This document shows positions 27,007-57,078 of a stretch of 64,000 bases of DNA, one piece after another. The stretch is from Flavobacterium oreochromis (lineage in GTDB: Bacteria; Bacteroidota; Bacteroidia; Flavobacteriales; Flavobacteriaceae), in assembly GCF_019565455.1 (NCBI RefSeq), contig NZ_CP067377.1, positions 2,734,001 to 2,798,000 of the forward strand. The letters are read 5' to 3'. The position numbers and the translations under genes are program-made. The notes below the pieces were generated by a model. It saw only the letters and a program-made list of their open reading frames with translations, searched no databases and was not told where the DNA came from. The number at the start of each line of letters is the position of its first letter. Positions within the stretch are counted from its first letter, which is position 1.

Positions 27007-28035
27007 GTGAAATATTATTACTATCCTTTTGGCTCCTTAATTCCTAATCGCCACGGATACAGTAAAGACTACCGTTACGGATTCCAAGGACAAGAAAAAG
27101 ATGACCAAATTAAAGGGGAAGGAAATAGTGTAAATTATGAAGCTCGTATGCAAGATACGAGAGTTGGACGATTTTTGAGTATTGACCCTTTAGCTAATAA
27201 ATTCCCTTGGTATTCTCCATATCAATTTGCTGGAAATACTCCTATCCAAGCAATAGATTTGGATGGCGCAGAAGAATATCATTATACTAGAATATGGGTT
27301 AATGGTAAGCCAATATTAAAATACACACATTCAAACGATATATATGAATACAAATGGAATCCACATAAAGATACTGAATCAACGGTAGGATTCTATTTGT
27401 GGGAACAGGTTAAAAATCCAAGAAAACTATATGTTGTTCATGAAGAAAGAGAAGGAACATGGGAAGAATTCGATAAAGTTAAATTTGTAACTTATGATGA
27501 AACTTGGACTTATACTTCACATGATAACATGGTAGAAAATAAAGATGGTGATTATGGTGGAGAGAGATATCAGTTTTATGCAATGAAAGGATTGCAGGCA
27601 GTTAGTGAAGAACAAAGAATGCAAGGTGGTGGAGGTTCGACTGTTAGTGGTTCAGTTGAATTGTCTAAATCTAGTTTAAGAGCTGTTAAAAGTCAAATAA
27701 AATCATGGAAAAACACTATTAGAAAATTTGATTTTACAAGTGCAGAAAAGAAAGCCCTTAAAACAGCAACTGGATATAGTAGACAGAGAATTGTTGATGA
27801 TGTAGCTATTATTGATCAATTTGGTTTTTATAATGAAACTTCGCATAGTCAGATTAATTTGATAAAAGAAGCTTTCAAAAGACATGGAGCTAAATCTATT
27901 GAAATTAGAACTAATTCAGTAAATGAAAAAATGAAAAAAATATTGGAATCTAGAATGAAATCAGGTAAGGGAATTTTTGGACTTAAAATTGAAAAAAATA
28001 TAGGTACTGGTTATAAACTATCGGGAAAATTATAA
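27007..28035 (+). CDS. Rhs tip 1: orphan RHS core with C-terminal toxin domain
   Basis: 342 residues. The first ~85 are the end of the Rhs shell: [52 protein letters not shown] and the core terminus AIDLDG. The remainder is variable, with a Gly-rich linker (MQGGGGSTVSGS) before a basic C-terminal domain (about 210-342) containing GYSRQRIVDDVAIIDQFGFY, SQINLIKEAFKRHGAKSIEI and GIFGLKIEKNIGTGYKLSG. I do not recognise the effector domain. The Rhs N-terminal body is missing, so it cannot be secreted as it stands. A candidate immunity gene begins 4 bases downstream. Confidence 0.8.
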   Translation: MKYYYYPFGSLIPNRHGYSKDYRYGFQGQEKDDQIKGEGNSVNYEARMQDTRVGRFLSIDPLANKFPWYSPYQFAGNTPIQAIDLDGAEEYHYTRIWVNGKPILKYTHSNDIYEYKWNPHKDTESTVGFYLWEQVKNPRKLYVVHEEREGTWEEFDKVKFVTYDETWTYTSHDNMVENKDGDYGGERYQFYAMKGLQAVSEEQRMQGGGGSTVSGSVELSKSSLRAVKSQIKSWKNTIRKFDFTSAEKKALKTATGYSRQRIVDDVAIIDQFGFYNETSHSQINLIKEAFKRHGAKSIEIRTNSVNEKMKKILESRMKSGKGIFGLKIEKNIGTGYKLSGKL

Positions 28036-28039
28036 TCTT

Positions 28040-28444
28040 ATGAGATTAAATGTATTAAAAGCTAAAATAGAGAGAAATAATTTATTGACAAATGCTGGAA
28101 AATACTTTATAGATGAAACTTCTGGAACAATAAAAGAATTGAATGAACAAGAAAAAAAAGCTTTAGTAGGAATTCAAAATAAAGATAAAGGAGTTTACAC
28201 TATTATTGGAGAACAGTTTGTTTATTATTTAACATCTTCTGGAAAGTGTGGGAAAATTTCGCATGATGAATTTATTGATGCATTACATGAAAATGCTTGT
28301 AGAATAGGAAAAGGCTACTTAAAGTTTAAATTTATGTATAAGAATATTGTTGTAAATAACAAAGACAAGGTGTGGTTACATAATGCCAATACTATGTTTT
28401 CCCTCTGGAATACAATCCTTTGGTTACAAAAACAAACCCCGTAG
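28040..28444 (+). CDS. Candidate immunity protein for Rhs tip 1
   Basis: 134 residues, no signal peptide, starting 4 bases after the tip 1 stop. This is the usual toxin-immunity spacing. Segments such as NKDKGVYTIIGEQFVYYLTS and KISHDEFIDALHENACRIGK suggest a mixed alpha/beta cytosolic protein. Its last ~20 residues (MFSLWNTILWLQKQTP) merge into the conserved cassette-end sequence, so the true C-terminus may be altered. No family recognised; the role is inferred from position. Confidence 0.55.
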   Translation: MRLNVLKAKIERNNLLTNAGKYFIDETSGTIKELNEQEKKALVGIQNKDKGVYTIIGEQFVYYLTSSGKCGKISHDEFIDALHENACRIGKGYLKFKFMYKNIVVNNKDKVWLHNANTMFSLWNTILWLQKQTP

Positions 28445-28638
28445 TCCCCAGCTCCCGCCCGAATCCTTTCGGGTGGTCAATCGATAACTATGGTTTTTCC
28501 AAATAATAATTGTTAAACTTTTCGATTATTTTTTGCGAATAATTCAATAACTTTATCTTGAAAAAACACAATAAGTCTTGCGAAGGGTAAGGAGTTTTTT
28601 ACTTCTTACCTTTCAAAAGAAAATTTATATGTTTTTGA

Positions 28639-29637
28639 TTAAGCTGCTTTTCTTTCGTATAGCTTATTATCTCTTACACAGGCGCAAATTCTATGCACTA
28701 GTTTGTTTCTAATATTGTTTATTATCAGCATTTTGTTTTTGCCTTCAGCTACTTTTCTTTCAAAATACTCTTTGAGTTCTCCTTTTGCTGAAATACAAGA
28801 AAGCGCACACATATGCAACTGTTTTTTGAGTGTTTTATTAGTCATATAATGGACTTTTGGTTTTGCTCTTACACTTTTTCCAGAACTGTATTCAAAAGGT
28901 ACTACACCGCAATAACAAGCTAATTGCCTTGGGTTTTCATACATTGTAAACTCATTGGTAAAACAAATCAACAACAAAGCGGTTACTTTTCCAACTCCAA
29001 CAACTGATGTTGTTTTTTCAAATAAATTGGTGAGTTTTTCATCATCTTTGATGACTTCATCCAATTCTTTCTCAATGTTTTTCAAATCTTTCTCTATTCC
29101 TTGAATGGTTGTTTTGGAATATTTTTCATTTAGCTTAGCCAGTTCTGGCTCAAAACTTTTGAGTTCATTAGTGTTTTTAATTAACAAGGCTTTGGTTTTT
29201 ACCAAATGATCTCTAAGAGTCAGTAACTTTCTAATTTTATCAATTACTTTTCTTGGTGGTTGATAAAACTGGGCTTCTTCTTGATTTTTCATCGCATAAT
29301 AGGCTATTCTTTCAGCATCTATTTTGTCATTCTTACCTCTTTGAATTCCTAAACTGCGAATAATTTTTAAAGACATTTCAACCCAAACAGAGAACTCTTT
29401 ATCAAGCAAATGGGGGATAATTATTTTGCCATATAAACCTGTATGTTCAAGGCAAACTAAGGTGTTTTTCGCATTAGATTGATTGGATTTCAACCAAGCT
29501 ATCAATTCTTTTAAACCTTTGCTATCATTAGTAAACTGATTGTGAATGCTGTTGTTTTTATCACCATTCAAAATCACTACTGCATCAAAATATTCTTTTA
29601 ACACGTCGATTCCTAGAAAATTGCTAAATTTACTCAT
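28639..29637 (-). CDS. IS110-family transposase (copy A)
   Basis: About 332 residues from MSKFSNFLGIDV, with a DEDD RuvC-like N-terminal domain (first Asp in FLGID; GKNDKIDAERIAYYA later) and a C-terminal Transposase_20 domain (TSVVGVGKVTALLLICFT, PRQLACYCGVVPFEYSSGKS) whose serine helps DNA cleavage. An in-frame MLILKSFS extension is possible. Copy A has Leu where copy B has Ser after GID (GIDVLKEYF against GIDVSKEYF). IS110 enzymes use a structured RNA to recognise both donor and target. Confidence 0.92.
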   Translation of the reverse strand: MSKFSNFLGIDVLKEYFDAVVILNGDKNNSIHNQFTNDSKGLKELIAWLKSNQSNAKNTLVCLEHTGLYGKIIIPHLLDKEFSVWVEMSLKIIRSLGIQRGKNDKIDAERIAYYAMKNQEEAQFYQPPRKVIDKIRKLLTLRDHLVKTKALLIKNTNELKSFEPELAKLNEKYSKTTIQGIEKDLKNIEKELDEVIKDDEKLTNLFEKTTSVVGVGKVTALLLICFTNEFTMYENPRQLACYCGVVPFEYSSGKSVRAKPKVHYMTNKTLKKQLHMCALSCISAKGELKEYFERKVAEGKNKMLIINNIRNKLVHRICACVRDNKLYERKAA

Positions 29638-29737
29638 AGAAAAAGATTTTAAAATTAGCAACCAAGTTATTGAATCTTCTATCCAAGCCTTAATAATAGT
29701 CCTTTATGACTGAATAACTATTTGATACTGATTCAAT

Positions 29738-29810
29738 AAAACTGACAAAGTCCTGATCGAAGGATAAGCCTAGAAACTTTGCAGTTCGAATGGTTTACTT
29801 TGTCAGTTTT
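29738..29810 (-). ncRNA. Candidate IS110 bridge RNA hairpin, copy A
   Basis: AAAACTGACAAAGT (29738-29751) and ACTTTGTCAGTTTT (29797-29810) form a perfect 14 bp stem enclosing a 45-base internal region, in the non-coding part upstream of the transposase gene. That is where the IS110 group keeps its bridge RNA. Copies B and C have the same structure, and copy C keeps the pairing with compensatory changes. Confidence 0.6.
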
Positions 29811-29854
29811 GGTTGTTATTAAATTTACGAATTTTTCAAAGAACAAATCTAAAG

Positions 29855-30215
29855 GGTTGTTTGCTCATTTTTTTAGAAGAAAGCCAAAGAGGCTTTTCTT
29901 AAAAATGAAGCGCTCTCTTTTGGCTTTCTTCCAAAAAAATCGAGCACCACAAGGCTAAAGTGCCTGTAAACTAAAGGTAAACACTCGAAGGTTAGTAAAT
30001 ACTTGCCAATGGATAAAGGATAAATAAACGGATTTTTATATATTTGGAATATAGCAATACAAGACGTTCTTTAAAAAAACAGTTGTAGTTAGAGGTAAGG
30101 CAAGCGGAAAATTTTTTTAACGATTTTGTCAGAAAAGAGATACCCAAAGTAGTGGTAACCCTAGTAAAAAACGCATAAATTATTATCCTTTTGGTTCGCT
30201 CGTGCCTAACCGCCA
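29855..30215. repeat. Conserved cassette leader, copy 1 (~350 bp)
   Basis: It starts GGTTGTTTGCTCATTTTTTT and runs to the YYPFGSL-coding start of tip 2. Nearly the same sequence precedes tips 3, 4, 5 and 6. It includes two AAGCC/GGCTTTC-type inverted repeats near its start and the landmark segments GTAAACACTCGAAG and GACGTTCTTTAAAAAAACAG. No convincing gene is encoded on either strand. It is probably a recombination homology or the remains of Rhs body DNA. Confidence 0.7.
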
Positions 30216-31277
30216 TGGTAGCTCAAAACCAAATGGTTATCGTTATGGATTTAATGGAAAAGAGGACGACTGGCAAATTAAAGGCGAAGGAAATAGTTAT
30301 GATTTTGGGGCTAGGTTTTATGATTCGAGGATTGGAAGGTTTTTAAGCCTTGATCCATTACAAACAAAGTTTGCAAATTTGAGTCCATATATTTATGCCG
30401 CAAATAATCCTGTTTCTCATATTGATCAAGATGGTAAATACGCTCTTTTTATCCATTATATGCTTACTAGATACAAATTAATGAAATCAGGTATTTCAGA
30501 AGTCGTAGCTAATCTAATTGCACATTATTCTTCAACTTATACAAACAATCCAGCATCTAGATCTTCAACTTATGAAGGGGCACTGATGGGAAGAGTTATA
30601 GTAGATAAGAATGTAAAATATAGTCAAGGTAATAACTCAATTTTCAAAAGTATTGGCGGAGCTTTAAATGGAGATCAAGCCAAAGGAATACTTTATAAAA
30701 AATGGATCGATTACACAAGAACTAAAGATTCACAGTCTGAAGGTGCTGAAGCTCAAAAGTGGCATTCTACAAGAACTTATTCTGAATCAAATATTATATC
30801 AGCTCAAGTTTCAATTAACAGAAGCCTTAATAATGCTTGGAGTTTATTATTCGAATCAGCAAGTTTAAGTTCTATTCAACATATGGAAGCAAATACAAAA
30901 GCCGTAGAAAATCTTGGAATGGCATGCATACTTTGCAAGATGTACAAGCACATAAAGGGGCTATATTTAGATCTACTGCAAAAAATTTATTTGGATATTT
31001 TAGTTGGGATGGAAATACCCACGATTTGGACAATGATATGCATCCTAATGAATTTGATTTTAAAAGAGCTTCATTTGCAACTGAAAGCGCAATAATTGTC
31101 CACCAAGCATTAAATGGTGTTTATAAAGGAATAAAAAATGGGCAGAGAATTTACACAGAAGGAATGACGACTGAACAATTAGGACAACTTAATCAGGCTT
31201 TACAAAAAGGAGGTTATGAATTAATAGATATAGAGAGAACAGATGTTAGTAAGATACAAAAGAAAGGAAAACGTTAA
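30181..31277 (+). CDS. Rhs tip 2: orphan RHS core with phospholipase-C-like toxin domain (frameshifted)
   Basis: The core runs [30 protein letters not shown] to SLDPLQTKFANLSPYIYAANNP and HIDQDG (residues 1-85). The C-terminal region has ANLIAHYSSTYTNNPASRSS and, after a missing G near 30915, GMHTLQDVQAHKGAIFRST and DNDMHPNEFDF. H-x3-D-x3-H (HTLQDVQAH) resembles the helical metal site of zinc-dependent phospholipase C-like proteins, so a membrane-lipid-attacking toxin is possible. This is inference from a short motif. No Rhs N-terminal body is attached. The lipoprotein gene downstream overlaps its 3' end. Confidence 0.75.
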
Positions 31278-31769
31278 AAAACTTTTTTTAGTTTTATGTT
31301 TGGTATGCGTTCTTTTTTCTTGCACAAGGACAAATTATTATTACACAGATTTAGATGATTCTAAATTAGAAGTTATAAAAAGAGAAACAAAAAAATATTC
31401 AATAATTATTTCTGTTATAGGTATTGATGACAAAATAGAAATTTTATCGAAAATTGAATCACTAGATGTAAAATTAGCTATTGATTCTCTCTCGTTAAAA
31501 ATTAATGATTCAATTAGTAACTTCTACAAAAAGAAATTCTTCTAAGCAATGGTAATGAAGTTACTTTTAGAAATTTTTGTGAATTAGAAAAATATAAGGA
31601 TAATAAAATCTCTAGAGAAAAGATTGTCAGATTTTATGTTAGTAATATAAGTTTTGAAAAAAATGAAAATATTAAGTTGAGTTTTTTAATAAATTCTAAT
31701 GACCCATTAAATAGTGAAAGGTTTGAGTTTTTTATGAAGAAGAGATCAAGGTATCGCTTGGTTTATTAA
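31243..31769 (+). CDS. Candidate lipoprotein immunity protein for tip 2 (frameshifted)
   Basis: An N-terminal hydrophobic stretch ends in a lipobox (LVCVLFSC), so the product would be lipidated and face the periplasm. That suits protection from a toxin acting on membranes or in the periplasm. A single A is missing in the A5 run at 31528-31532. The repaired frame continues KEILLSNGNEVTFRNFCELE to the stop at 31767. The coding region overlaps the tip 2 end by 35 bases. Not a recognised family; the role is inferred from position. Confidence 0.6.
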
Positions 31770-31860
31770 CCTGCATCTCCTTAAGTAATTCTATACAAAA
31801 GTGTCCGTTATAACGGAATTACTAGTAAATAAAGGGGTTTAGAGAGGGTATTTGAAATAA

Positions 31861-31897
31861 AAAAATCCCTAACGTTAATTTGTTAGGGATTTTTTTT
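31861..31897 (+). terminator. Terminator after cassette 2
   Basis: AAAAATCCCTAAC and GTTAGGGATTTTT form a 13 bp stem with a short loop followed by a T run, about 90 bases past the immunity gene. Confidence 0.85.
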
Positions 31898-32024
31898 ATG
31901 ATCTGTTTTTTGTGATTTTCCTAAAGGAGGTTGGTTTTTGTTTGGCTTGCACTTTCCACGATAATTTTAGCAAAAAGCGTCCCTTAATAAACACAAAACC
32001 AACTGTGATGCTGGTTTTGTTGTT

Positions 32025-32318
32025 TTATGGTTTTAATTTATCAAGGCTTTGATAGGTATTAAAAACGGAGTAAATGTGTACAATATTGTTTTCTTGGTCA
32101 ATATTAAAATAAACAAGAAACGGAAACGATTTAAATGGTATAGCTCTTAAATGTTTGTATCGTACTTGGTAAAAAGGATTAGTTTCTAGGTTTTGATATA
32201 CTTCTTCAAGTTGTTGGTCAAAATTAGCTACTGCAGAAGCAGAAAATTGACTGTAATACTCGTAGGCATTTTCAATTTCAAGCTGTGCTTGAGGCAAAAT
32301 AAATAAACTATAAGCCAT
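32025..32318 (-). CDS. RelE/ParE-family toxin
   Basis: About 97 residues from MAYSLFILPQAQLEIENAYE (an upstream MKS start is possible). PFYQVRYKHLRAIPFKSFPFLVYFNI is the usual beta-sheet core of ParE/RelE toxins with its Arg/Lys cluster. The gene overlaps the antitoxin gene upstream by about 10-20 bases, typical of type II toxin-antitoxin pairs. Members of this fold either poison gyrase or cut mRNA; which one cannot be told. Confidence 0.88.
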   Translation of the reverse strand: MAYSLFILPQAQLEIENAYEYYSQFSASAVANFDQQLEEVYQNLETNPFYQVRYKHLRAIPFKSFPFLVYFNIDQENNIVHIYSVFNTYQSLDKLKP

Positions 32319-32526
32319 ACTTTTCACGTAATTGGCTTAATTGTTCTCTAGCAGGCATAAAACTGGTTTTAGGTTCGTTTAAACGAGCGTCAAGTATTTT
32401 CTTTTGTTCTTCAGTTAGTGTAAAATCTTCTTCTTGTTTTTTCTCGTATTTAGCACCAATAAGTTCTAAAAATTCCAAAAAGAAATGTTGTTTATTATCT
32501 GGGATATTTACATTATATGAAATCAT
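32308..32526 (-). CDS. Antitoxin of the RelE/ParE pair
   Basis: A 72-residue helical protein with the C-terminal pattern LTEEQKKILDARLNEPKTSF and AREQLSQLREKYGL found in small addiction-module antitoxins (DUF2683/CHP02574-like). It lies directly before the toxin and overlaps it. The N-terminal half (NIPDNKQHFFLEFLELIG) may bind DNA for autorepression. Confidence 0.82.
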   Translation of the reverse strand: MISYNVNIPDNKQHFFLEFLELIGAKYEKKQEEDFTLTEEQKKILDARLNEPKTSFMPAREQLSQLREKYGL

Positions 32527-32538
32527 AACTTTACTTTT

Positions 32539-32889
32539 TTAGATAGATAATTGTTGTTGTAAATTACTTTTTAAAATAAAAGCATCTATTAACTCTTTTA
32601 CAATGTGTTTTTTCTCATCCGAAAGTTTTTCGATAGACTTGAATTGATTCAATAACTCTTTATCGGTTAGGGTAATATTGGCTAAATCTTCTTTAGTACC
32701 ATTTAATAAATATTCTGTGGTAACATTTAAGGTATTAGCGATTTTTGCTAATACATCAGCCGAAGGCATTGCTCCTTTGTTTTCATATCTTCCTATTTGC
32801 ACGTGATGTACTTGTGCTAGCTCGCTTAACTCTAGTTTAGAAAGTCCTTTTTCGGTTCGTAATTGCTTTAATCTACTGCTAAAATCCAT
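32539..32889 (-). CDS. XRE-family HTH regulator
   Basis: 116 residues. RLKQLRTEKGLSKLELSELA and HHVQIGRYENKGAMPSADVL form a Cro/CI HTH, and a helical C-terminal tail (EKKHIVKELIDAFILKSNLQ) may mediate dimerisation. It precedes the toxin-antitoxin pair by 13 bases and is likely in the same transcript. A divergent primase-like gene begins at 33060, so the gap 32890-33059 probably holds its operator; ACTATAAT and ATTATAGT form a loose inverted repeat there. Confidence 0.85.
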   Translation of the reverse strand: MDFSSRLKQLRTEKGLSKLELSELAQVHHVQIGRYENKGAMPSADVLAKIANTLNVTTEYLLNGTKEDLANITLTDKELLNQFKSIEKLSDEKKHIVKELIDAFILKSNLQQQLSI

Positions 32890-33059
32890 AACTATAAAGT
32901 TTATTAATTAAGCTAAATTAACTATAATGCAAGTAAAAAGCAAATAATTTGTGCGTTGTGGGTTAATTTTCAAAATTATAGTTTGTAAATATAAAAACTA
33001 TTTAGTTTATTTCTGTGCGAATTAGTTAATAAGTTAAATTTTTAAAAATATTTTAAAAG

Positions 33060-34647
33060 ATGAGTAATAACTTAAACACCACCAACCCCAACCACTACAT
33101 CCACGAAACCAAACACTTAAAAATAGCCATTTAGGCGGTATCAGGTTCAACAATTTAGAAGCCTTACGAGTAACACTGGGAATACAAAAACTAAAATCAG
33201 AGCAAGTTCTAAGACAGAATATTGATTTATACAATGACACCAGTATAGAAAAACTCACAAGAAAAGTAGCCGAAAAACTGGAAATAGGCACAACAATCGT
33301 AAGAAGAGATTTAGACGCATTAACCAATGAACTGGAAAACTACAGACTGCAAGAAGTAGAAAGAACAGTCGAAAGTCAAAAGTCGAAAGTCAAAAGTTTG
33401 ACTGAGAAAGAGATTAAACAAGCAAAGGAATTTTTAGCACAGGAAAATTTAATTGAACAAACACACAAAACTTAATCGGTAAATCGGGAGTAATCGGAGA
33501 AGAAATCAACCGCTTGTTAATGTACTTAATCTTTACCTCAAGAAAAACCAACAATCCATTACATTGTATATCATTAGGCAGTAGTGGAGCAGGAAAAACT
33601 CACCTGCAAAGTAAAGTAGCAGAACTTATTCCCGAAGAAGATAAAATAGAAATGACCGTTTTATCAGCCAATGCCTTTTATTACTTCAATCGCACGGAAC
33701 TACAAAACAAACTAATCTTAATCGAAGATTTGGACGGAGCAGAAAGTGTACTCTATCCACTTCGAGAACTACAATCAAAGAAAAAAATCACAAAAACCGT
33801 TGTTCATAAAGACAAAAAAGGCACTACTCAAACCATCCATTTAACGGTGGAAGGTCCTGTAAGTGTGAGTGGTTGTACTACACAAGAAAGCATCTACGAG
33901 GATAATAGTAATCGAAGTTTTTTATTATACATCGATGAAAGCCAGGAGCAGGATGAAAAAATTATGTTCTACCAGCGTGCCGTGTCAGCAGGACAAATCA
34001 ATTATGAAGAAGAAATACAAACTAAAATGTTACTTCAAAATGCACAAAGACTACTCAAAACCATAACGGTAAGAAATCCTTTTGCAATGCACTTAACACT
34101 TCCTCAATCCGTCTTTAAACCTCGAAGAACCAACGCCCATTATTTACAATTTATAGAAGCCATTACCTTTTACAAACAATACCAAAAGTTCCACCACATC
34201 GACAAAGAAACAGGAGAGGAATATATAGAAACATCAGTAGAAGATATACAAGAAGCCAACGAACTCATCAAAGAAGTGTTACTTAGAAAAAGCGATAGTT
34301 TATCAGGAGCGTGCAGAAACCATTTAGAAAACCTAAAAGAATATTTAAATCAAAGTAATCAAACTCAATTTTCCAATAGCGAAATAAGAAGAAATTTAAG
34401 AGTAAAAGAAACCACACTTAGACGATACAACACACAATTATTACTAGAAAACTAGATTAGAAAAGTAAAGAATAAAGTAGGTAAATCAAATTGTTATGAA
34501 GTAGTAAATATAGATGAATACAAAGACTTGAAAGACTTAATAAATAAAGCATTACAAGATTGTATGACACAAATACAACTCGCCAACTCGCCACAAACTA
34601 ACCTTACTCAAAAAACGAAGTCAATCAAAATAAAATCAACTAGTTAA
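33060..34647 (+). pseudogene. Broken primase-associated P-loop ATPase of a mobile element
   Basis: Read through two single-base losses (about 33130-33132 and 33467-33470) and an in-frame stop at 34453, this encodes about 525 residues. SNNLNTTNPNHYIHETKHLK starts it, GSSGAGKTHLQSKV is a Walker A motif, LILIEDLDGAESVLYPL a Walker B-like acidic stretch, and EIRRNLRVKETTLRRYNTQL a terminal HTH-like part. It resembles the C-terminal part of the CHC2-zinc-finger primase proteins of Bacteroidota mobile elements, but lacks the CHC2 domain. A short repeat (GTCGAAAGTCAAAA, twice) has been inserted at about 33368-33400. It lies next to a tyrosine recombinase. Confidence 0.65.
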
Positions 34648-34739
34648 GTGTAAAAAGTAAAAATAATCCAAAAAATAACATACACCAAAAAATAATTATT
34701 AACCATAAACAAAATTCCCCTTTTGGGGTTAGGGGGCTT

Positions 34740-37434: not shown

Positions 37435-37460
37435 TCTTCCAAAGAACAATCAATCAATAG

Positions 37461-46670: not shown

Positions 46671-46682
46671 TAAACTATAATT

Positions 46683-48461: not shown

Positions 48462-48508
48462 GCGTGACGCTCGAACTATCGGTGGGCGGGAGCGGGATTT
48501 TATATTTA

Positions 48509-48964
48509 TCAATAGTAATTATTTGAGAATCTAACTGTCCAATTTCCCTCATCTGATAAAAAGACATATATTCTTTTATACTTTTTATTTATTTGTAAAT
48601 CAAAACAAGATTTTTTTGATATCGACTCAATTTTAAGAATAGGTACAATTTTGTCATTTTTATAACTGTATCCAAAATAGTTTGTATGATTATCAGAATT
48701 ACTAGCTGTTTTTAAAAATTTGTCGTAATAAATTTTATTATTGACAAAAGCTTTTATAGAATCATTAAATGATTGTAAAAAGATAACTACAAAACCTTGT
48801 TTCTTAATATCTTCAGAAGATATTTTTTGAGATTTTAAAGGTTTATCATATTGTATAGTAATACTATTGTTACAACTAATACTTTTTATGGTTTGTTGTG
48901 TTGGGGAGCAACTAATTAAAGTAGTTAGTGTTAAAAACGAAATTAAAAAAGAGATAGTTTTCAT
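48509..48964 (-). CDS. Candidate lipoprotein immunity protein for tip 6
   Basis: 151 residues with a lipoprotein signal (ISFLISFLTLTTLISCSPTQ; Cys 19). The body is beta-rich (SITIQYDKPLKSQKISSEDI, KRIYVFLSDEGNWTVRFSNN). It begins 9 bases after the tip 6 stop on the same strand. A periplasm-facing lipoprotein would be suited to block an extracytoplasmic peptidase. Not a recognised family. Confidence 0.6.
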   Translation of the reverse strand: MKTISFLISFLTLTTLISCSPTQQTIKSISCNNSITIQYDKPLKSQKISSEDIKKQGFVVIFLQSFNDSIKAFVNNKIYYDKFLKTASNSDNHTNYFGYSYKNDKIVPILKIESISKKSCFDLQINKKYKRIYVFLSDEGNWTVRFSNNYY

Positions 48965-48973
48965 AAGTTGGAT

Positions 48974-49828: not shown

Positions 49829-50158
49829 ATTTATGCGTTTTTTACTAGGGTTACCACTACTTTGGGTATGTCTTTTCTGATAAAACCAGTAAAAAAAAAT
49901 TTTTCCGCTTGCCTTACCTCTAACTACAACTGTTTTTTTAAAGAACGTCTTGTATTGCTACATTCCAAATATATAAAAATCCGTTTATTTATCCTTTATC
50001 CATTGGCAAGTATTTACTATTCTTCGAGTGTTTACCTTTAGTTTACAGGTACTTTAGCCTTGTGGTGCTCGATTTTTTTGGAAGAAAGCCAAAAGAGAGA
50101 GCTCCATTTTTAAGAAAAAGCCTCATTGGCTTTCTTCTAAAAAAATGAGCAAACAACC
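49808..50158. repeat. Conserved cassette leader, copy 5 (inverted)
   Basis: Reverse complement of the leader copies; closest to copy 3 (41772-42126), sharing its small variants. Confidence 0.75.
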
Positions 50159-50675
50159 GAAGGGCGTTAGTACTTCGACAGGCTCAGTAACCTATGCGGT
50201 TCAAGAATAAACACCCCCAAGCACCGCAGGGAAGTAAAAAAGGCGTTATGCGGTTAGTGGTATAAAAAAGCCTTTTTACTTACCGAGGAGCGATGTGGCG
50301 GTGTTGCGGCAATGTACCGAAGCCTGCGACACGGGATGCGGACGAGGAGGCACGACGAGGAGCAATGTGGCGCAGTGTGCTGAAAGCATAGCCCTGAAGC
50401 GTACTGCGAGGAACGAAGCAGGTAGCAAATCTATTTCGGCGTAGCTTTGCTACACCTTGCAGGGCGTACTGAGAGTACAGGGAGCAACCGCCACAACACG
50501 GCGAGCGTTGGACGTGTTCCTTGATTTAGGTGAAGCGAAGCGGAACACACTAAAAACTATAACGGACAAAATAGCGAAGCGTGAACGACGCAGAGAGTGT
50601 GTGCAAGGAAGAACGAGAACGGAGCTTGTAAAAGCGACTGGAAGTGATGACTGGAACAAAGCGAGCCAGGAGTGA
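50159..50675. repeat. GC-rich conserved block, copy 3 (inverted)
   Basis: Reverse complement of copy 2 with only scattered differences, including the full CACTGCGCCACATTGCTCC segment. Confidence 0.75.
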
Positions 50676-50700
50676 ACACCTATTGATGGCTCTACATTGG

Positions 50701-50869
50701 AAGATTATTTGATTGGATGAAAAGTGTTTATCATTTCGTGAAGTTCTTCTAAATTGTCTTGTTGGTAGCGTTCTGTACTGCTGATATATCTATGTCCTGC
50801 TAGATATTGGGTTTTTCGAAGATTGTTTGATTTGAGCCAGTTTACTATTACACTGTTTCTGATTGGATT
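50701..50869 (-). pseudogene. 3' fragment of the tyrosine recombinase gene (inverted)
   Basis: On the minus strand it encodes the last ~55 residues of the integrase (RNSVIVNWLKSNNLRKTQYL to TFHPIK), truncated on its 5' side by IS256 copy 3. It extends about 56 bases further into the gene than the 41114 fragment does. Confidence 0.8.
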
Positions 50870-52232
50870 GGCAGTATAACACAAACTGTGTAAGTTAAAA
50901 AGTTATTCTGAAAAATTAGCTCGCTTAAAAGAGCTAAAATTTTTCGGAAATAACTTTTTAACGTTTTATATATTTACATAGTTATGATAGACAAAGAAGA
51001 CTTATTAAACAACAAGGATTTTTTTAAATCCTTTAAAAATGGAGAAGATTTATCTTCCTTTTTTAAGCAAATGCATAAACGAGCAGTAGAACACATGCTC
51101 AATGCCGAACTAGATGCTCACTTAGATACCGAAAAACATCAAAAAACCTCTGACGGCAATTATCGTAATGGTCATGGAACCAAGAAGATTAAGACTTCCT
51201 TTGGAGAAGATCAAATTAAAGTCCCAAGAGATAGAGAAGGTAGTTTTGAACCTGTTTTAGTCCCTAAAAGACATAATATTATTGATGGTTTAGAGAATGT
51301 TATCATTTCATTTTATGCTAAAGGAATGAGTGTTAGTGATATTGAAGAGCAAATCAAAGAAATGTATAATTTTGACATTTCAACTTCTACCATTTCAAGA
51401 ATTACTAATGCAGTAGCAAGTGAGATAGTAACCTGGCAAAACAGACCATTAGATGAAGTTTACTTAATTGTTTGGATGGATGGAATTGTTTTCAAAGTTC
51501 GTGAAAACTCAAAAGTAATCAATAAAACTATCTATTTAGCAGTAGGACTTAATCATGAAGGACGAAAAGAAGTTCTTGGTATGTGGTTAGGTAAGAATGA
51601 AAGTTCAAGCTTCTGGATGAGTGTTTTAACCGATTTAAAAGCCCGCGGAGTGGAAGATATTTTAATAACGGCTACCGATAATTTAAACGGATTTACTCAA
51701 ACCATACGTTCTGTTTTTCCTGAATCACAAACACAGATTTGTGTGGTTCACCAAATAAGAAATGCTTGTAGATATGTCGTATGGAAAGATAAAAAGCAAT
51801 TTACAACCGACATGAAACTAGTCTATACAGCACCAACAAAACAAGCCGCCGAGTTAGCTCTAGAAGATTTTGCTCAAAAATGGGAATCTAAATATGGATA
51901 TGCTATCAAATCTTGGAGGGAAAATTGGGACGAATTAACCATCTTTTTGACTTCCCGTTAGAAATCCGCAAAATTATTTATACCACAAATTTAATTGAAA
52001 ATCTTAATGGGAAAATTCGCAAGTACACCAAAAACAAAATGTCGTTTCCAACAGATGAGGCGGTAATAAAATCGGTTTACCTTGCCTTAAAAGAAGCAAC
52101 TAAAAAATGGTCGATGCCAATACAAAATTGGGGTATTGTTTTAAACCAATTTAATCTTATATTTGAAAAAAGGCTCAGATTATAAAATCCAAGCCTAAAC
52201 TTTTTAACTTACACACTTTGTAGGATAGTGTC
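50870..52232 (+). mobile_element. IS256-family insertion sequence, copy 3 (1363 bp)
   Basis: Identical in length and ends to copies 1 and 2. The flanks (TGATTGGATT and TTTTTATGAG) do not match. Its left flank is an integrase fragment, its right flank a sequence repeated at the far end of the array (57079). Confidence 0.9.
50984..52185 (+). CDS. IS256-family transposase, copy 3 (frameshifted)
   Basis: Same two-part product as copies 1 and 2, with the same T5 break between LTIFLTSR and [10 protein letters not shown]. The Asp, Asp and Glu catalytic residues are all encoded. Confidence 0.9.
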
Positions 52233-52505
52233 TTTTTATGAGAAGTAAGCTTACTTCTCTTTGTGATTATGAATTAAGGAATTAGTAATAGGAAGAATAG
52301 TTCTTAGTATGATTACTCTTATATAAAATTGTGTATATTGGAAAATTTAGAGTTTTTTCTTTTCTATTTTTCTAGTTTCTAGGTCAAAATTTGTTCTCAT
52401 TGACACATAGATTTTATTTGTGTTCAGAATTGTGTCAAAAATCCTTTTGTTTGTACTTAAAACTGCCATATGTATTTTAAAAATTAGACATAAAAAAAAC
52501 TCACA
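52233..52505. repeat. 273 bp direct repeat, left copy
   Basis: From TTTTTATGAGAAGTAAGC to AAAAAAACTCACA; almost identical to 57079-57352, including GGAAGAATAGTTCTTAG and ACTGCCATATG. It stops inside what is, at the other copy, the stem of a terminator hairpin. No gene seen within it. Confidence 0.75.
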
Positions 52506-52666
52506 AACCAGTTAGAGCAGGTGAATTGAATACACCTAGTCCAGCTGACAGAGAGGCTTTAGATGTTTTAAATCAATCCAAACAATATATTTATCATGAT
52601 GGGCAAAGAACTACAATATATAGAGGTAAAGGTTCTGAAGCTGATGCATCAACAACAAAATATTAA
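52506..52666 (+). pseudogene. C-terminal tail of an Rhs-type toxin (tip 8 remnant)
   Basis: The frame THKPVRAGELNTPSPADREA continues to YRGKGSEADASTTKY and a stop. It has protein-like composition and is followed by a small gene with an immunity-like position, so it looks like the last ~50 residues of a toxin whose 5' part was lost at the junction at about 52505. Confidence 0.5.
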
Positions 52667-52669
52667 TTT

Positions 52670-52941
52670 ATGGCTATAATGATAGATGGAAGGAGTAAAT
52701 GTAAGATTTGTGGTAATGTTATGTATTCGAAAGAAGAATTGATAGCTTTTCCACGCTTCTTAATAAACGAAGATGACCCACTTTTCTTTTTTATGATAGG
52801 ATATTTCATGAGCATTGCTTTTTAAATTATTCAATGAGTAAAATTCTAATTAAAAAATTATTGGAAGAAGGTTATTTTGAAGAATTTAAAAAATATAAAA
52901 ATATGTTGTCCAGCCCCGATTACTATGATAAAAGCAAATAA
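52670..52941 (+). CDS. Small zinc-ribbon-like protein, candidate immunity gene (frameshifted)
   Basis: Starts 3 bases after the toxin tail. MAIMIDGRSKCKICGNVMYS holds a CxxC pair and, after one missing T in the T6 run at 52787-52792, YDRIFHEHCFLNYSMSKILI supplies HxxxHC-like ligands, suggesting a zinc-binding fold. The repaired product is about 90 residues, ending SPDYYDKSK. IS110 copy C begins at its stop codon. No family recognised with certainty. Confidence 0.5.
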
Positions 52942-53074
52942 TAATTGTTAAACTTTTCGATTATTTTTTGCGAATAATTTAATAATTTTATGTAGCAAAA
53001 ACACAATAAGTCTTGCGAAGGGGAAGAAGTTTTTTACTTCTTTCCTTTCAAAAGAAAAATTTATTTATTGTTTT

Positions 53075-54070
53075 TTATGCTACTTCTCTTATTTGGTAAT
53101 GTCTGTTTTCTCTAACACAAGCACATATAATGTGTACAAGTTTGTTTCTTACGTTATTTAAGACAAGCATTTTGCTTTTACCTTCTGCTACTTTACGTTG
53201 GTAATAAATTTTCATTTCTGGATTATGCATTACACAAGACAAAGCACACATATGCAATTGTTTTTTTAATTTCTTATTAGCCATAAAATGCACCTTCGGC
53301 TTAGCTCTTATACTTTTTCCAGAGGTATATTCAAAAGGAACAACTCCACAATAACAAGCTAATTGTCTTGGGGATTGAAAAGTTGTAAATTCTTTTGTAA
53401 AACAAATTAATGATAAAGCAGTAACCTTTCCAACACCAGGAACAGAAGTGATAGTATTGTACAAAGAATTTAATTTTTCATCTTCTAAAATAAGAGTTTC
53501 TAAATCTTTTTCAATCTTTTTAATGTCCTGATTAATTCCTTTGATACTTTGCTTTTGATGTTTTTGAGTTATCCTATAAAGCTCTTTATCCAATAACTTT
53601 AGTTCATTTACATTTGTAATCAAAGTAGCTTTAAACGCTACCATTTTTTCACGTAAAGACAACAATACTCGTATTTTTTCTAAAGACTTTTTAGGTGCTT
53701 TAAAAAGGGTTACTTCGTCTTGATTTTTAAAAGCGTAAAGTGCAATTCGTTCTGAATCAATCTTATCATTTTTACCTCTTTGAAGACCACTGCTTCGAAT
53801 GATTTTTAAAGACATTTCTATCCAAGTGTTACAATTCTTAGCAAGAAGAACACTAGACAATACTTTACTATACATCCCTGTGTGTTCCATACATATCAAT
53901 GTATTTTCAATAGAGGCATTTTCTTGTTTAAGCCATTTTAGAAAACCCTTAACACCTTTAACAGAATTAGCAAATTGATTGTGTTTTTGAATGTTACTTT
54001 CGACCAATAAAGTAGCATCGAAATACTCTTTGGAAATATCAATTCCAATAAAATGATTAAATTTGTTCAT
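53075..54070 (-). CDS. IS110-family transposase (copy C)
   Basis: 331 residues from MNKFNHFIGIDISKEYFDAT. DEDD-domain residues are kept (GIDISKEYF, GKNDKIDSERIALYA), as is the Transposase_20 part (TSVPGVGKVTALSLICFT, YCGVVPFEYTSGKS). The frame is intact, so this copy is the best candidate for an active element. Confidence 0.92.
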   Translation of the reverse strand: MNKFNHFIGIDISKEYFDATLLVESNIQKHNQFANSVKGVKGFLKWLKQENASIENTLICMEHTGMYSKVLSSVLLAKNCNTWIEMSLKIIRSSGLQRGKNDKIDSERIALYAFKNQDEVTLFKAPKKSLEKIRVLLSLREKMVAFKATLITNVNELKLLDKELYRITQKHQKQSIKGINQDIKKIEKDLETLILEDEKLNSLYNTITSVPGVGKVTALSLICFTKEFTTFQSPRQLACYCGVVPFEYTSGKSIRAKPKVHFMANKKLKKQLHMCALSCVMHNPEMKIYYQRKVAEGKSKMLVLNNVRNKLVHIICACVRENRHYQIREVA

Positions 54071-54164
54071 AACATTGAGTATTAGATAACCAAATACTGA
54101 ATTCTTTCGAAACCTTGATAATAGGTCTAAAAACCTTAATTACTACTCTGAAGCTTTTCAGTAT

Positions 54165-54234
54165 AAACCAACAAAGTCCTAATCGGGTCGTAAGTCGTTA
54201 ACTTTGATCGCTCGAGGGTTCACTTTGTTGGTTT
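54165..54234 (-). ncRNA. Candidate IS110 bridge RNA hairpin, copy C
   Basis: AAACCAACAAAGT (54165-54177) and ACTTTGTTGGTTT (54222-54234) form a 13 bp stem. Compared with copies A and B, CTG/CAG in the stem has become CCA/TGG, so pairing is kept by compensatory changes. The enclosed sequence is different (AATCGGGTCGTAAGTCG). Confidence 0.6.
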
Positions 54235-54283
54235 GGTCATTTTTGTTATAATTTACAAATTTTTCAAAGAACAAAACTAAAGG

Positions 54284-54901
54284 TTATCTGATGATGCTGT
54301 TAAAGTCTATGATTATTATGATACTGTAGATGTAGAGTACATAGTAAAGGATAAAAATAATAAAGTTTTAACTAGAAAAATCGTAAAAAACGATTCAGAA
54401 ACACTTTCACATTCTGGAGTGTCTCCTATAACACCAGAAGCTTGGTTGATATTAAATGATAGAATCGATGATATCCCTCAAGAAAAGAATGACCCTTTGA
54501 AAGGAAATGAAAAGGACATTTTAAAGGAGGTATTACACTAGTAGTAGATGATGCTGGGAATATATTAAATGTTAGAGGTTTGGAACGAATTAATTCAGCA
54601 AGTAATACCACACAAATTGATATTTCAGAGCTTTATATGATAGCATCTGGACAAGTTGGTGCGCCATCTATATCGCACCTAGATAATATAAACAAACTTG
54701 CAGATGGTGTAAAAGTGATGGAACAAGTTGAAAATGCAGTAGCTTCAACAAAAAAAACAAGTAGATAACTTTAAAAAAACTACACAATTTAGTTCTAATA
54801 AAGAGTCCGATTCAATAACAGTAAGTACTTATGATCAAAACAATGGCGGTAAGTTTGTTAAAAGTGAGAGAGTTGCAAGAAAAAATTTGAGTAAAAAATA
54901 A
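54284..54901 (+). pseudogene. Rhs tip 7: truncated copy of the tip 4 toxin
   Basis: Starts inside the toxin domain right at the IS110 copy C end and matches tip 4 from about 42470 to 42925 almost base for base. It then diverges to a different C-terminal tail (VASTKKQVDNFKKTTQFSSN). One A is missing near 54512 and there is an A8 run (54750-54757) with one A too many, so the frame breaks twice. The RHS core is gone. Confidence 0.75.
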
Positions 54902-54907
54902 GTTACT

Positions 54908-55684
54908 ATGAAAAATTTAATTCTTTTTATTCTTCTATTAATTTTTATCTCTTGTAAAAAGAATAAAGTGATTGAAAGAATAAACCCTGAAAACAATGAA
55001 AGAGAAATATATAATTATATTATAAAAGAAGGAGACACTGTATTACAGGGAAAATCTTATACATACAATCAAGATGGAGCGCTTGTATTAAAGTGCAGTT
55101 ATAAAAACAACAAACTCGACGGTAATTTATATAGATTTTTTGATAGTGGTAAATTAAAAGAAATCCAAAATCTCAGAAATGGAATGAATGATGGGATTGC
55201 TGTATCATATTTTAAAAATGGAAAAATAAATACTTTATTGACATATAGTCGAGATACTTTGTGTGGGGATGGTTTCTATAATTATGAAAACGGGAACTTA
55301 AGGAAATATATGTTATATGATAGTCTTGGAAAAGTACCATTTATAATTCGTTTAGATTCTTTAGGTAGGATAAAAAGTTATGAAGGAAAACCTGTGAACT
55401 GTTTTTTAGATTCAGACAAAATTAAATTTGGAGAAAAATTTAAAATGGATTGTATGTTGGCGAATATCCCAAATACAATAAGAAAAGTTGAATTTATCTA
55501 TTCAGATTTTCATAAAGGAAAAATAAAGATTAAAAAATCAGGAGTAAATTATTTATTACTAGAAGAGACAAAATATAAAAAAGGAAAAAATCTTTTATAT
55601 GTTATAGTAACTTATAAATTTAATAAAAAGTATTATAATCAAATTTTAAAAGATACTGCTTTTATAGATTATTATGTAAATTAA
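54908..55684 (+). CDS. YwqK/MORN-repeat lipoprotein, candidate immunity protein for tip 7
   Basis: 258 residues, intact. The lipoprotein signal ILFILLLIFISC is followed by MORN/YwqK-type repeats (GKSYTYNQDGALVLKCSYKN, DGNLYRFFDSGKLKEIQNLR, GIAVSYFKNGKINTLLTYSR) and a C-terminal beta domain (KFGEKFKMDCMLANIPNT). It parallels the gene at 43079 in position and C-terminal pattern (ANIPNTIRKVEF against PNIPNSKKSYSI) but has a different anchor and is overall much diverged. Confidence 0.7.
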   Translation: MKNLILFILLLIFISCKKNKVIERINPENNEREIYNYIIKEGDTVLQGKSYTYNQDGALVLKCSYKNNKLDGNLYRFFDSGKLKEIQNLRNGMNDGIAVSYFKNGKINTLLTYSRDTLCGDGFYNYENGNLRKYMLYDSLGKVPFIIRLDSLGRIKSYEGKPVNCFLDSDKIKFGEKFKMDCMLANIPNTIRKVEFIYSDFHKGKIKIKKSGVNYLLLEETKYKKGKNLLYVIVTYKFNKKYYNQILKDTAFIDYYVN

Positions 55685-55698
55685 TCTGACCCCCAGCC

Positions 55699-56908
55699 CA
55701 TAAGTGTTCGAAACCTTAAATTTTATAATTTTACAAGAAACTATGCAAGTTTCGGAAGTGTTAAATTATATTCCAAAAGAGGAATTAGAAAGATTATCAT
55801 TAAAGTACAAGGTTGATTACCAAGTTAAAAAGCTCAATGGGCAAACGATGTTTCAACTTTTACTTTTTTCAATGCTAAATGTAAAAAATAATAGCCTGAG
55901 GGTTATGGAGGAATTTTATCATTCATTAGCATTTAAAAGTATTGCAAACAATAGTTTTGACGGAGTAAAATACAATTCGATAAGAGACCGATTAGTTACT
56001 ATAAATCCGTGTTATTTCGAAGCAATTTTCAAAAGTTGCTTGAAACAATTTCAAAATAAATATCTTAATAAAAAGCACAACATCATTGCTTTCGACTCTA
56101 CTTTAGTCAGTATTTCTTCTAAATTATTTGAAGAAGGAATGCAGATTAACAAACAAGGAGATAAAAGATTTGTGAAATTTAGTATGGCTTTTTCGAATGT
56201 TCCTATACACTCAAAGATATTTACAGAACAAGCTTTCGTTTCTGAAGATTTTGCTTTAAAAGATTTGATAAATGAATGTCCCCTAAGTCCAGAAAATATA
56301 TTGGTCTTTGACCGCGGACTTCAGGCAAGAAGTGCATTTGAAAGTTTTAATAACCAGAATTTTATTTTTGTTACTCGTCTTAATAATTATACTCGATTTG
56401 ATATAGTTGAGGAATTTAAAATAGTTCAAAACGAAACAGAAAGATTATATATTGAAAGAGATTTGAAGGTCATATTGTTTGATAAACGAAATAAAAAAAC
56501 AACTTCATTTTTAAGGTTAATCATTGCAAGAGAAAAGGAAAGTAATGAAATATTCTATTTTTTAAGTAATAGTAATGACCTGACTTCTAAAGAGATTGTC
56601 GATATTTACAAAAAGCGATGGGAGATTGAAGTGTTTTTTAAATTTATAAAACAAAACTTAAACTTTAGTCATTTGATTTCTAGGAATCTAAACGGAATAA
56701 AGGTTGTTATGTATATGATTTTGATAATGGCGATCCTTTTGACAGTTTATAAAAAACTAAACAATCTAAAAGGGTACAAAATACCAAAACTAAAATTTGC
56801 TAACGAGTTAGAAGTATTAATCATCAAAGATATTGTGGAAAAATGCGGTGGAAACCCAAATCAAGTTGAGGATATTTTCAAACCAAAATAGGGTTTCGAA
56901 CACTTATG
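55699..56908 (+). mobile_element. IS4-family insertion sequence, copy 2 (1210 bp) with 9 bp target duplication
   Basis: Perfect 17 bp terminal inverted repeats as in copy 1. CCCCCAGCC at 55690-55698 and again at 56909-56917 is a 9 bp target duplication, so this is a clean, recent insertion into the cassette 7 end. Confidence 0.93.
55743..56891 (+). CDS. IS4-family transposase, copy 2
   Basis: Intact, about 382 residues, and nearly identical to copy 1 (differences include DLKVILF against DLKIILF and EKCGGNPN against EKCGENPN). All catalytic residues and the YKKRWEIEVFFK signature are present. Confidence 0.92.
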   Translation: MQVSEVLNYIPKEELERLSLKYKVDYQVKKLNGQTMFQLLLFSMLNVKNNSLRVMEEFYHSLAFKSIANNSFDGVKYNSIRDRLVTINPCYFEAIFKSCLKQFQNKYLNKKHNIIAFDSTLVSISSKLFEEGMQINKQGDKRFVKFSMAFSNVPIHSKIFTEQAFVSEDFALKDLINECPLSPENILVFDRGLQARSAFESFNNQNFIFVTRLNNYTRFDIVEEFKIVQNETERLYIERDLKVILFDKRNKKTTSFLRLIIAREKESNEIFYFLSNSNDLTSKEIVDIYKKRWEIEVFFKFIKQNLNFSHLISRNLNGIKVVMYMILIMAILLTVYKKLNNLKGYKIPKLKFANELEVLIIKDIVEKCGGNPNQVEDIFKPK

Positions 56909-56917
56909 CCCCCAGCC

Positions 56918-57078
56918 CCGCGAAGTCCCCCACTGGTGCTCGTTTATAACGAGTACCTACATACAGGAAAAAGAAAAACAGAGCATTTGTAATGCGGGTG
57001 ATACTGTAAAAATAAAAAGTTATAAAAAGAAACACGCTTTTGCTTCATTCTTCGCAATGACAGGGCGTGTTTTGTTTT
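56918..57078. other. Right end of the Rhs array
   Basis: Contains a palindromic sequence (GTGCTCGTTTATAACGAGTAC near 56937) and a hairpin AAACACGC/GCGTGTTT at 57030-57072 followed by a T run, a likely transcription terminator for the array. No gene. Confidence 0.5.

What the first reader, a model, noticed from the sequence alone, without database searches (positions are those of the whole stretch)
27007..57078. Array of orphan Rhs toxin-tip/immunity cassettes with no Rhs body
At least seven units share the final Rhs core (YYPFGSL...PNRHG...GRF...DP) and then carry different C-terminal domains and different downstream genes. None has an N-terminal Rhs/YD-repeat body in this window, so they look like a silent store of alternative tips. 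Orphan rhs-CT cassettes behind an intact rhs gene are known in Enterobacteria. What is unusual here is the number, the shared upstream leader and the association with a tyrosine recombinase 3' end, suggesting a dedicated tip-swapping locus. The idea of active recombination into an expressed rhs gene elsewhere is inference.
Basis: partly seen in the sequence, partly recalled or inferred. Interest (0 to 1): 0.9.

Follow-up and report, generated by a model that had tools for sequence, protein, structure and literature searches.

The report
Recombinase elements that swap toxin tips
The window holds a worn-out copy of an array of exchangeable bacterial toxin ends, and relatives suggest that such arrays are built by a mobile element whose own recombinases plug new toxin ends into a carrier gene, a step for which no enzyme was known.

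Summary
The window has six Rhs-core/tip/downstream-gene units (not seven) plus one coreless remnant; five share a ~300-nt leader. They lie in a 31-kb insertion absent from the same site in F. covae. Two carrier rhs genes exist elsewhere in this genome, each beside its own orphan array. The leader is the right end of an element: XRE repressor, CHC2 primase/helicase, recombinases TyrA and TyrB; in the window it is broken. Elsewhere units read tip–immunity–XRE–primase–TyrA–TyrB–leader|next core. TyrB homologs sit beside Rhs cores: 64 of 76 loci (101 of 102 core hits on TyrB's strand), 10 of 10 genomes in a second draw, 0 of 8 lone recombinases. Orphan cores begin in four discrete zones, and the TyrB tree predicts which (4 changes; shuffled mean 21). 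Orthologous carriers in three species bear three tips. Best reading: each unit is an integrative element whose left end is a promoterless gene 3' end; TyrA/TyrB insert it into the carrier's core, loading a new tip and pushing the old one downstream. Circles and excision are inferred, not shown. Two related elements sit by toxin-like genes without an Rhs core. This would supply the enzyme missing from the 2009 C-terminal-displacement model.

The parts
26413..57391 (.). Whole array: insertion relative to F. covae
   Evidence: window 26277-26412 and 57392 onward align to L222 4550-4414 and 3711 downward; ~0.7 kb there against 31 kb here
27007..28035 (+). Unit 1: Rhs core + tip (junction ~27016; leader differs)
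   Evidence: TIGR03696 44.9 bits
28040..28444 (+). Unit 1 presumed immunity gene
   Evidence: position only; no Pfam hit
28639..29661 (-). IS110-type transposase
   Evidence: near-copy (96-97%) of 44058-45080, which has IS110 domains
29894..30180 (+). Leader of unit 2 (element right end)
30181..31277 (+). Unit 2: Rhs core + tip, frame changes near 30837-31095
   Evidence: TIGR03696 53.6 bits
31243..31545 (+). Unit 2 small downstream gene
32539..32889 (-). XRE-type repressor at element left end
   Evidence: HTH_3 54.6 bits
33071..34647 (+). Primase/helicase gene, in three frames
   Evidence: 80% nt to the L031 element
34740..35786 (+). TyrA-TyrB chimera left by internal deletion
   Evidence: matches L031 14955-15671 then 16483-16732; Phage_integrase to position 125 of 172
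35891..37092 (+). Mutator/IS256-type transposase, in two frames
   Evidence: 98-99% to L032 4493-5695, Transposase_mut 365.7 bits
37135..37434 (+). Second TyrB 3' end fragment
   Evidence: 95% aa to TyrB
37451..37912 (+). Element terminal repeat
37972..38258 (+). Leader of unit 3
38259..39312 (+). Unit 3: Rhs core in two frames + tip with SH3_3
39327..39689 (+). Unit 3 presumed immunity gene
   Evidence: position only
39798..40999 (-). Mutator/IS256-type transposase, in two frames
41108..41727 (+). TyrB 3' end remnant and terminal repeat
41812..42101 (+). Leader of unit 4
42102..43079 (+). Unit 4: Rhs core + tip
   Evidence: TIGR03696 49.5 bits
43309..43875 (+). Unit 4 presumed immunity gene
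   Evidence: position only
44058..45080 (-). IS110-type transposase
45312..45600 (+). Leader of unit 5
45601..46670 (+). Unit 5: Rhs core + tip, split in two frames
   Evidence: TIGR03696 35.5 bits
46683..47072 (+). Unit 5 presumed immunity gene
   Evidence: position only
47257..48444 (+). DDE (IS4-like) transposase
   Evidence: DDE_Tnp_1 67.2 bits
48974..49828 (-). Unit 6: Rhs core + metallopeptidase-like tip
   Evidence: weak M12/reprolysin hits below cut-off; TIGR03696 39.4 bits
48509..48964 (-). Unit 6 presumed immunity gene
   Evidence: position only
49829..50118 (-). Leader of unit 6
50195..50870 (-). Terminal repeat and TyrB 3' end remnant
50984..52185 (+). Mutator/IS256-type transposase, in two frames
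53075..54070 (-). IS110-type transposase
54283..54750 (+). Coreless remnant: copy of part of unit 4's tip
   Evidence: 95-99% repeats D10, D12
54908..55684 (+). MORN-repeat protein, presumed immunity
   Evidence: MORN_2 33.3 bits; role by position
55704..56891 (+). DDE (IS4-like) transposase
   Evidence: 99% to 47257-48444

Best explanation
The units are integrative elements that carry toxin tips. One unit reads [3' part of an Rhs core - toxin tip - immunity gene - XRE repressor - CHC2 primase/helicase - TyrA - TyrB - leader]. TyrA (canonical) with TyrB (degenerate partner) recombines the unit's leader/core junction with a fixed site inside a carrier's core. The carrier reading frame then continues into the incoming core and tip; the old tip is pushed downstream behind the element. 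Repeated rounds build the orphan array. Shown: unit order, discrete junctions, recombinase lineage predicting the junction zone, same-strand association across the phylum, purifying selection, different tips on orthologous carriers. Inferred: circular intermediate, primase-driven replication, XRE control, toxin and immunity function, order of events. The window array is a decayed, carrier-less block of this kind.
For: (1) Association: 64 of 76 TyrB loci hold an Rhs core, 101 of 102 core hits on TyrB's strand. Second draw of 296 Bacteroidota genomes: 10 of 10 other genomes with high-scoring TyrB have a same-strand core within the fetched stretch; 0 of 8 lone recombinases do. In 21 Flavobacterium genomes 27 of 27 recombinase hits in element regions (25 of them from this genome) but 0 of 123 others have a same-strand core within 8 kb. 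(2) Order: in 14 of 14 loci with a long upstream carrier frame, that frame runs 185-349 residues past the core before the element begins. (3) Junctions: 8 of 11 orphans of R and W begin at the same carrier base (others -4, -3, +8). On one T6SS carrier, four orphans behind TyrB2 start at offset 155-156 and three behind TyrB3 at 102 (partly duplicates). (4) Across 47 TyrB proteins four junction classes need 4 changes on the tree (minimum 3; shuffled mean 21.0; 0 of 200 as low). (5) dN/dS 0.05-0.16 in 10 comparisons of TyrA, TyrB and helicase. (6) Orthologous T carriers in three species end in three tips while some orphan tips are shared. (7) In G136, one 1755-aa carrier frame, five elements with uninterrupted primase, helicase, TyrA and TyrB frames (XRE hit for four) and six orphan cores that all begin at profile positions 14-18, five of them behind an element.
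Against: No circular form, excision or strain-level swap was seen; none of the 76 loci, 35 of them whole contigs, had overlapping ends; plasmid and viral collections held no close TyrB relative. Once a leader/core junction exists, homologous recombination in the core could move tips with the junction kept, so fixed junctions alone do not prove that each event is site-specific. Adjacent identical units can arise by unequal crossover. Some orphans have no element beside them (the T array of F. covae; 4 of 11 in T_own), and F. davisii has orphans at three other offsets (64, 164, -320). Of 12 core-bearing Flavobacterium genomes among 21, only 2 have TyrB, so tip arrays also form without it. In the tree the branch that sets class B apart has a support of only 5, and long-branch warnings apply. 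Three loci with flank showed no core (L137, L141, L152).
Confidence: 0.74

Rival explanations
1. Homologous recombination alone swaps tips (the 2009 C-terminal displacement model); the recombinase element is a hitchhiker that once inserted in an rhs core and is copied along with orphan units.
For: The shared core gives homology; tandem identical units; a tip shared between species without the element (T_own 69348 and T_dav 10551, homology over core, tip and next gene only); most core-bearing Flavobacterium genomes looked at lack TyrB (10 of 12).
Against: Does not explain why recombinase lineage predicts junction class, why two leader families (by eye) end at the same base, why the element stays under purifying selection and uninterrupted, or why it is found beside cores when other recombinases are not.
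Confidence: 0.17
2. The element is an ordinary mobile element whose insertion site happens to be the rhs core; it does not carry the tip to its left.
For: Its right end is exactly at the core junction, as for any site-specific inserter.
Against: Plain insertion would leave carrier body|element|old tip, with no tip left of the element. In 14 of 14 carriers the frame runs at least 185 residues past the core before the element; G136 shows the same.
Confidence: 0.06
3. About the window array alone, and compatible with the best explanation: it is dead sequence, a transposase-riddled remnant with no role.
For: Broken recombinases, eight transposase copies, cores or tips of units 2, 3 and 5 broken in frame, no carrier in the window, absent from F. 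covae.
Against: Units 1, 4 and 6 keep open core-tip frames and downstream genes; immunity genes could still protect; an intact class A recombinase pair exists at 739-741 kb.
Confidence: 0.5

Closest known systems
Rhs C-terminal displacement in Enterobacteriaceae (Jackson 2009, PMC2935791; passages read)
   Same: Carrier followed by orphan core-tip units; circular intermediate proposed; old tip displaced downstream
   Different: [quoted passage not shown] here a recombinase pair in the units and discrete junctions
Snodgrassella rhs loci (Steele 2017, PMC5727410; passages read)
   Same: Integrase-like genes near Rhs genes, suggested to help transfer
   Different: No element, site or junction defined in the passages read; different phylum
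Ornithobacterium hominis / Bergeyella RHS arrays (PMC13183296; passages read)
   Same: Bacteroidota rhs with 26 orphan tips; tips shared between genera independently of the RHS body
   Different: No recombinase mechanism for tips in the passages read
Polymorphic toxin loci with recombinases (Zhang 2012, PMC3482391; 12 passages read)
   Same: Tip replacement by standalone cassettes; XerC/D-type genes noted beside polyimmunity loci
   Different: There the recombinases are tied to immunity-gene arrays without toxin cassettes
Integron
   Same: Tyrosine recombinase, array, newest cassette next to a fixed expressed end (recalled)
   Different: Units here have their own recombinase pair, primase and XRE; the cassette is a gene 3' end fused in frame; TyrA scores 112.8 bits against a 265-bit cut-off for integron integrase
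Prophages and integrative elements that restore the 3' end of a target gene (recalled)
   Same: Insertion inside a gene with the element supplying the 3' end
   Different: Here the supplied 3' end is a different domain
Gamma-mobile-trio elements (recalled; name seen only)
   Same: Mobile elements with tyrosine recombinases carrying T6SS effectors
   Different: Carry whole genes (recalled); TyrA is far below the GmtY cut-off (39.4 vs 340 bits)

Membership tests
Rhs polymorphic toxins | Rhs-associated core domain TIGR03696 | tested here: met
   Five of six window units above cut-off, unit 3 below
Rhs polymorphic toxins | YD-repeat carrier in the same genome | tested here: met
   Carriers at 773-784 kb and 887-892 kb, both split in frames in this assembly; none in the window
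Rhs polymorphic toxins | Tip is toxic and neutralised by the next gene | not testable with these tools
   Sequence only; few domain hits
Jackson C-terminal displacement arrays | Orphans downstream of a carrier | tested here: met
   R, T and G136 arrays; the window array itself has no carrier
Jackson C-terminal displacement arrays | Core fragments of variable length | tested here: not met
   Discrete recurring junctions in R, W and most of T and across genomes; a few T orphans scatter
Jackson C-terminal displacement arrays | No co-occurring integrase | tested here: not met
Integron | One integron integrase serving the array | tested here: not met
   Recombinase pair per unit; integron integrase model below cut-off
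Integron | attC sites | not tested
   No search for attC was made
RIT elements (recalled) | Three adjacent tyrosine recombinases | tested here: not met
   Two adjacent per element in the intact elements (one unit of G057 and others have a further TyrA-like frame upstream of the primase)
Site-specific integrative element | Excised circular form | not testable with these tools
   No reads; no contig-end overlaps
Site-specific integrative element | Complete tyrosine recombinase | tested here: met
   TyrA of L031 matches Phage_integrase 2-169 of 172 at 141.6 bits and holds the HxLRH and Tyr boxes (sequence; boxes recalled); TyrB lacks the box-I Arg in 17 of 17 rows

The most novel reading that the evidence does not exclude
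A Bacteroidota-wide class of self-mobile elements whose cargo is the replaceable 3' end of another gene: dedicated recombinase pairs, each lineage reading its own site, load new C-terminal toxin domains in frame into carriers, Rhs in most cases and other polymorphic-toxin carriers in some (L265, L269), making an ordered archive of past tips.
Probability: 0.6. Interest if true: 0.93.

Novelty: new variant of a known kind. Interest (0 to 1): 0.86.

Why it matters
How toxin tips get onto polymorphic-toxin carriers has been explained since 2009 by homologous recombination with a circle whose origin was left open; [quoted passage not shown] An element that carries tip, immunity gene and its own site-specific recombinases would answer this for part of the Bacteroidota, explain why toxin and immunity travel together, and give a defined enzyme, site and readout to test. 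It would also be a natural way to replace the end of a gene in frame.

Tried and rejected
A general end motif GTTGTGCAG near the junction: found in only 5 of 49 loci, not general. Circular contigs by end overlap: none of 76 loci, 35 of them whole contigs. Plasmid search with one TyrB gave nine records, all under 60% identity; viral search gave one weak hit. Rfam found only tRNAs in the window at gathering thresholds. tRNA-directed integration at the window site was considered because of the adjacent tRNA cluster; comparing the two ends showed no convincing common repeat. 'Silent store feeding an expressed gene' was not adopted for the window because no exchange with the 773-kb carrier was seen. 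Literature: ten full-text searches showed no paper in their listings that describes this element; only openly licensed papers are held, so a description elsewhere cannot be excluded. Structure prediction was not used.
Full report
Observation. The window (bases 2,734,001-2,798,000 of a 3.54-Mb single-contig genome) holds six units that start at the same motif, TAYTAYCCYTTYGG, at 27019, 30181, 38259, 42102, 45601 (+) and 49815 (-). Each runs from there through the Rhs core into a different C-terminus with a small gene behind it. TIGR03696 is above cut-off in five of six. Five units carry the same ~300-nt leader. A seventh 'unit' is a coreless copy of part of unit 4's tip. Eight transposase copies of three kinds sit among the units. 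In F. covae the two flanks (hydrolase/XRE side and tRNA-thiolase side) are 0.7 kb apart where this genome has 31 kb. F. davisii has prophage genes beyond the same tRNA cluster, with an rve transposase and a tape-measure protein, so Mu-like.

Carriers. The genome has two. Locus R (724-784 kb): a 2873-aa protein with DUF6443 and RHS repeats, continuing through overlapping frames into a 594-aa frame with the YYPFGSL core and a tip; I left these frames as they are and cannot say whether the breaks are real or assembly errors. Its orphans lie on both strands. Locus T (882-956 kb): a VgrG-linked Rhs gene, also split in frames, followed by an array with most units about 8 kb apart.

The leader is an element end. 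Aligning the R and W junctions, the carrier, the leader-bearing units and the units with other leaders are homologous only from the YYPFG codons onward. Upstream of the leader lies a terminal repeat, then TyrB, TyrA, a primase/helicase and a divergent XRE gene. In the window this element is broken: TyrA is fused to the TyrB 3' end, a transposase follows, and two other units retain only TyrB 3' remnants. Intact TyrA-TyrB pairs exist at 739-741 kb and in locus T.

Generality. Of 150 Flavobacterium genomes 14, this one included, have a TyrB match at 1e-20. A 17-row TyrB alignment (A1) was used on one genome per species: 101 relatives, the best 80 kept, 76 loci, 73 of them titled as Bacteroidota. 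An Rhs-core profile seeded from this genome and seven relatives and iterated on the loci found a core in 64 of 76, 101 of 102 hits on TyrB's strand. Some of the 76 come from the seed genomes (for example L127, L139, L143). Of the 12 without, eight are contigs of 3.2-6.2 kb, L098 shows a core remnant by eye, and L137, L141 and L152 show none. Because the profile was iterated on these loci, I tested it on a second draw: 296 genomes spread over the phylum. Ten genomes other than this one have a TyrB of at least 186 bits, a line set at a gap in the scores (next 140) before cores were looked for; all ten have a same-strand core within the fetched 5-20 kb. Ten of the 53 lower-scoring genomes, taken by hand from near the top of the list, were fetched as controls: eight are lone XerC/D-like genes with no core; two (L265, L269) have the whole element but no Rhs core. 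In 21 Flavobacterium genomes, recombinase hits inside element regions have a same-strand core within 8 kb in 27 of 27, other hits in 0 of 123, with two more on the opposite strand. Of the 27, 25 are hits, often fragments, in this one genome; the recombinase list was cut at 150; 'element region' was set from TyrB hits and array bounds, so this control is not fully independent. Conversely, of 12 core-bearing genomes among the 21 only this one and G016 have TyrB: tip arrays also exist without the element.

Order. In 14 of 14 loci whose upstream core lies in a frame of at least 840 aa, that frame runs 185-349 residues past the core and the first element gene starts 347-2677 nt after it; an XRE hit is first in 12 of 14.

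Junctions. Mapped against the carrier, 8 of 11 orphans of R and W start at offset 4 and the rest at 0, 1 and 12. In T_own, of 11 orphans, four behind TyrB2 start at 155-156, three behind TyrB3 at 102, and four not directly behind a TyrB at 32, 99, -267 and -44. Of six in F. davisii three start at -263 and the others at 64, 164 and -320; of eight in F. covae four start at -269, one at -267 and three at -381. Copies are partly duplicates and so not independent. Across genomes the orphan core begins in one of four profile zones: YYPFG, YKYKYNG, YDYGARFY or FLSVDP. Of 46 loci with a core within 3.5 kb of TyrB, two were dropped (L093, L110: long downstream frame), and three lineages of this genome were added with classes read by me. 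On the TyrB tree the four classes need 4 changes (minimum 3; shuffled mean 21.0; 0 of 200 as low). The tree is a quick one: class D is one clade side with support 98, the branch for class B has support 5, and long-branch warnings concern the T-locus rows among others. Within the YKYKYNG class two unlike leader families, by eye, end at the same base.

Function of the genes. TyrA matches Phage_integrase at 141.6 bits and has the usual boxes. TyrB keeps the second Arg, His and Tyr but lacks the first Arg in 17 of 17 (box names recalled). TyrA, TyrB and helicase show dN/dS 0.05-0.16 in ten chosen comparisons. A degenerate but conserved TyrB suggests an obligate partner (inference).

Tip exchange. 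The T carrier, 72-77% identical between species with VgrG beside it, ends in a different tip in this species, F. davisii and F. covae. Orphan tips are shared: 90.5% with F. covae, 91.6% with F. davisii, 67% between those two. The tip shared with F. davisii is homologous over core, tip and next gene only, 1364 nt, with different junctions. G136 shows the cleanest array: a 1755-aa carrier frame, five elements with uninterrupted primase, helicase, TyrA and TyrB frames (an XRE hit for four), and six orphan cores that all begin at profile positions 14-18, five of them behind an element.

Mechanism. The order carrier-tip-immunity-element|core-tip-immunity is not what plain insertion of the element would give; it fits insertion of a unit whose left end is the tip. 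The circular form, replication by the primase, and control by XRE are inferred. Homologous recombination could also move units once a junction exists, so I keep it as the main rival.

Beyond Rhs. L269 has the element behind a frame of 1453 aa (cut by the fetched end) without Rhs core whose C-terminus is an AHH nuclease domain (46.1 bits), with two downstream frames that share an N-terminal part and differ after it; I could not map a carrier junction there. L265 has two copies of one tip that are identical from one point onward under different leaders, and a third frame with one of those leaders and another tip. These suggest that the element family also serves other toxin carriers.

Literature. 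Jackson 2009 proposed displacement with a circle, noted variable core fragments and no known integrase (passages). Zhang 2012 noted XerC/D genes near polyimmunity loci (passages). Steele 2017 noted integrase-like genes near Rhs (passages). Papers on Ornithobacterium, bee gut T6SS, Bacteroidetes polymorphic toxins and F. columnare genomes were seen only as passages found by search terms and do not describe the element there.

Noticed in passing
L265 (G347) and L269 (G307): Elements of the same architecture beside toxin-like genes without an Rhs core; L269's neighbour ends in an AHH nuclease domain
   Followed up: partly
window 57405-58017: tRNA Arg-Pro-Ser triplet in a perfect 283-nt tandem duplicate; both copies also align in F. 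covae and F. davisii
   Followed up: partly
L223 (F. davisii, syntenic site): Mu-like prophage genes beyond the same tRNA cluster, so this may be an insertion hotspot
   Followed up: partly
L066-L068 (T locus): Orphan units open with a short signal-peptide-like frame in the leader (by eye), so orphans might be made as small exported proteins
   Followed up: no
F. covae R array (L183-L186), F. davisii (L176-L178, L187-L188), L089, L105: Units in one array with 100% identical tips, as if the same unit inserted or was duplicated repeatedly
   Followed up: partly
G136 4.308-4.424 Mb: Stretches of about 6-17 kb between tip and XRE, of unknown content
   Followed up: no
G136, G057, G032, G121 elements: A further ~200-aa TyrA-like frame (22-26% identity) upstream of the primase in some elements
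   Followed up: no
window 21016-21189: 87-nt tandem repeat, calcium-binding-like DxDxDG pattern by eye
   Followed up: no
L128, L100, L094: Element-bearing contigs binned as Rhizobium, Bacillota and Deltaproteobacteria MAGs; transfer or mis-binning
   Followed up: no
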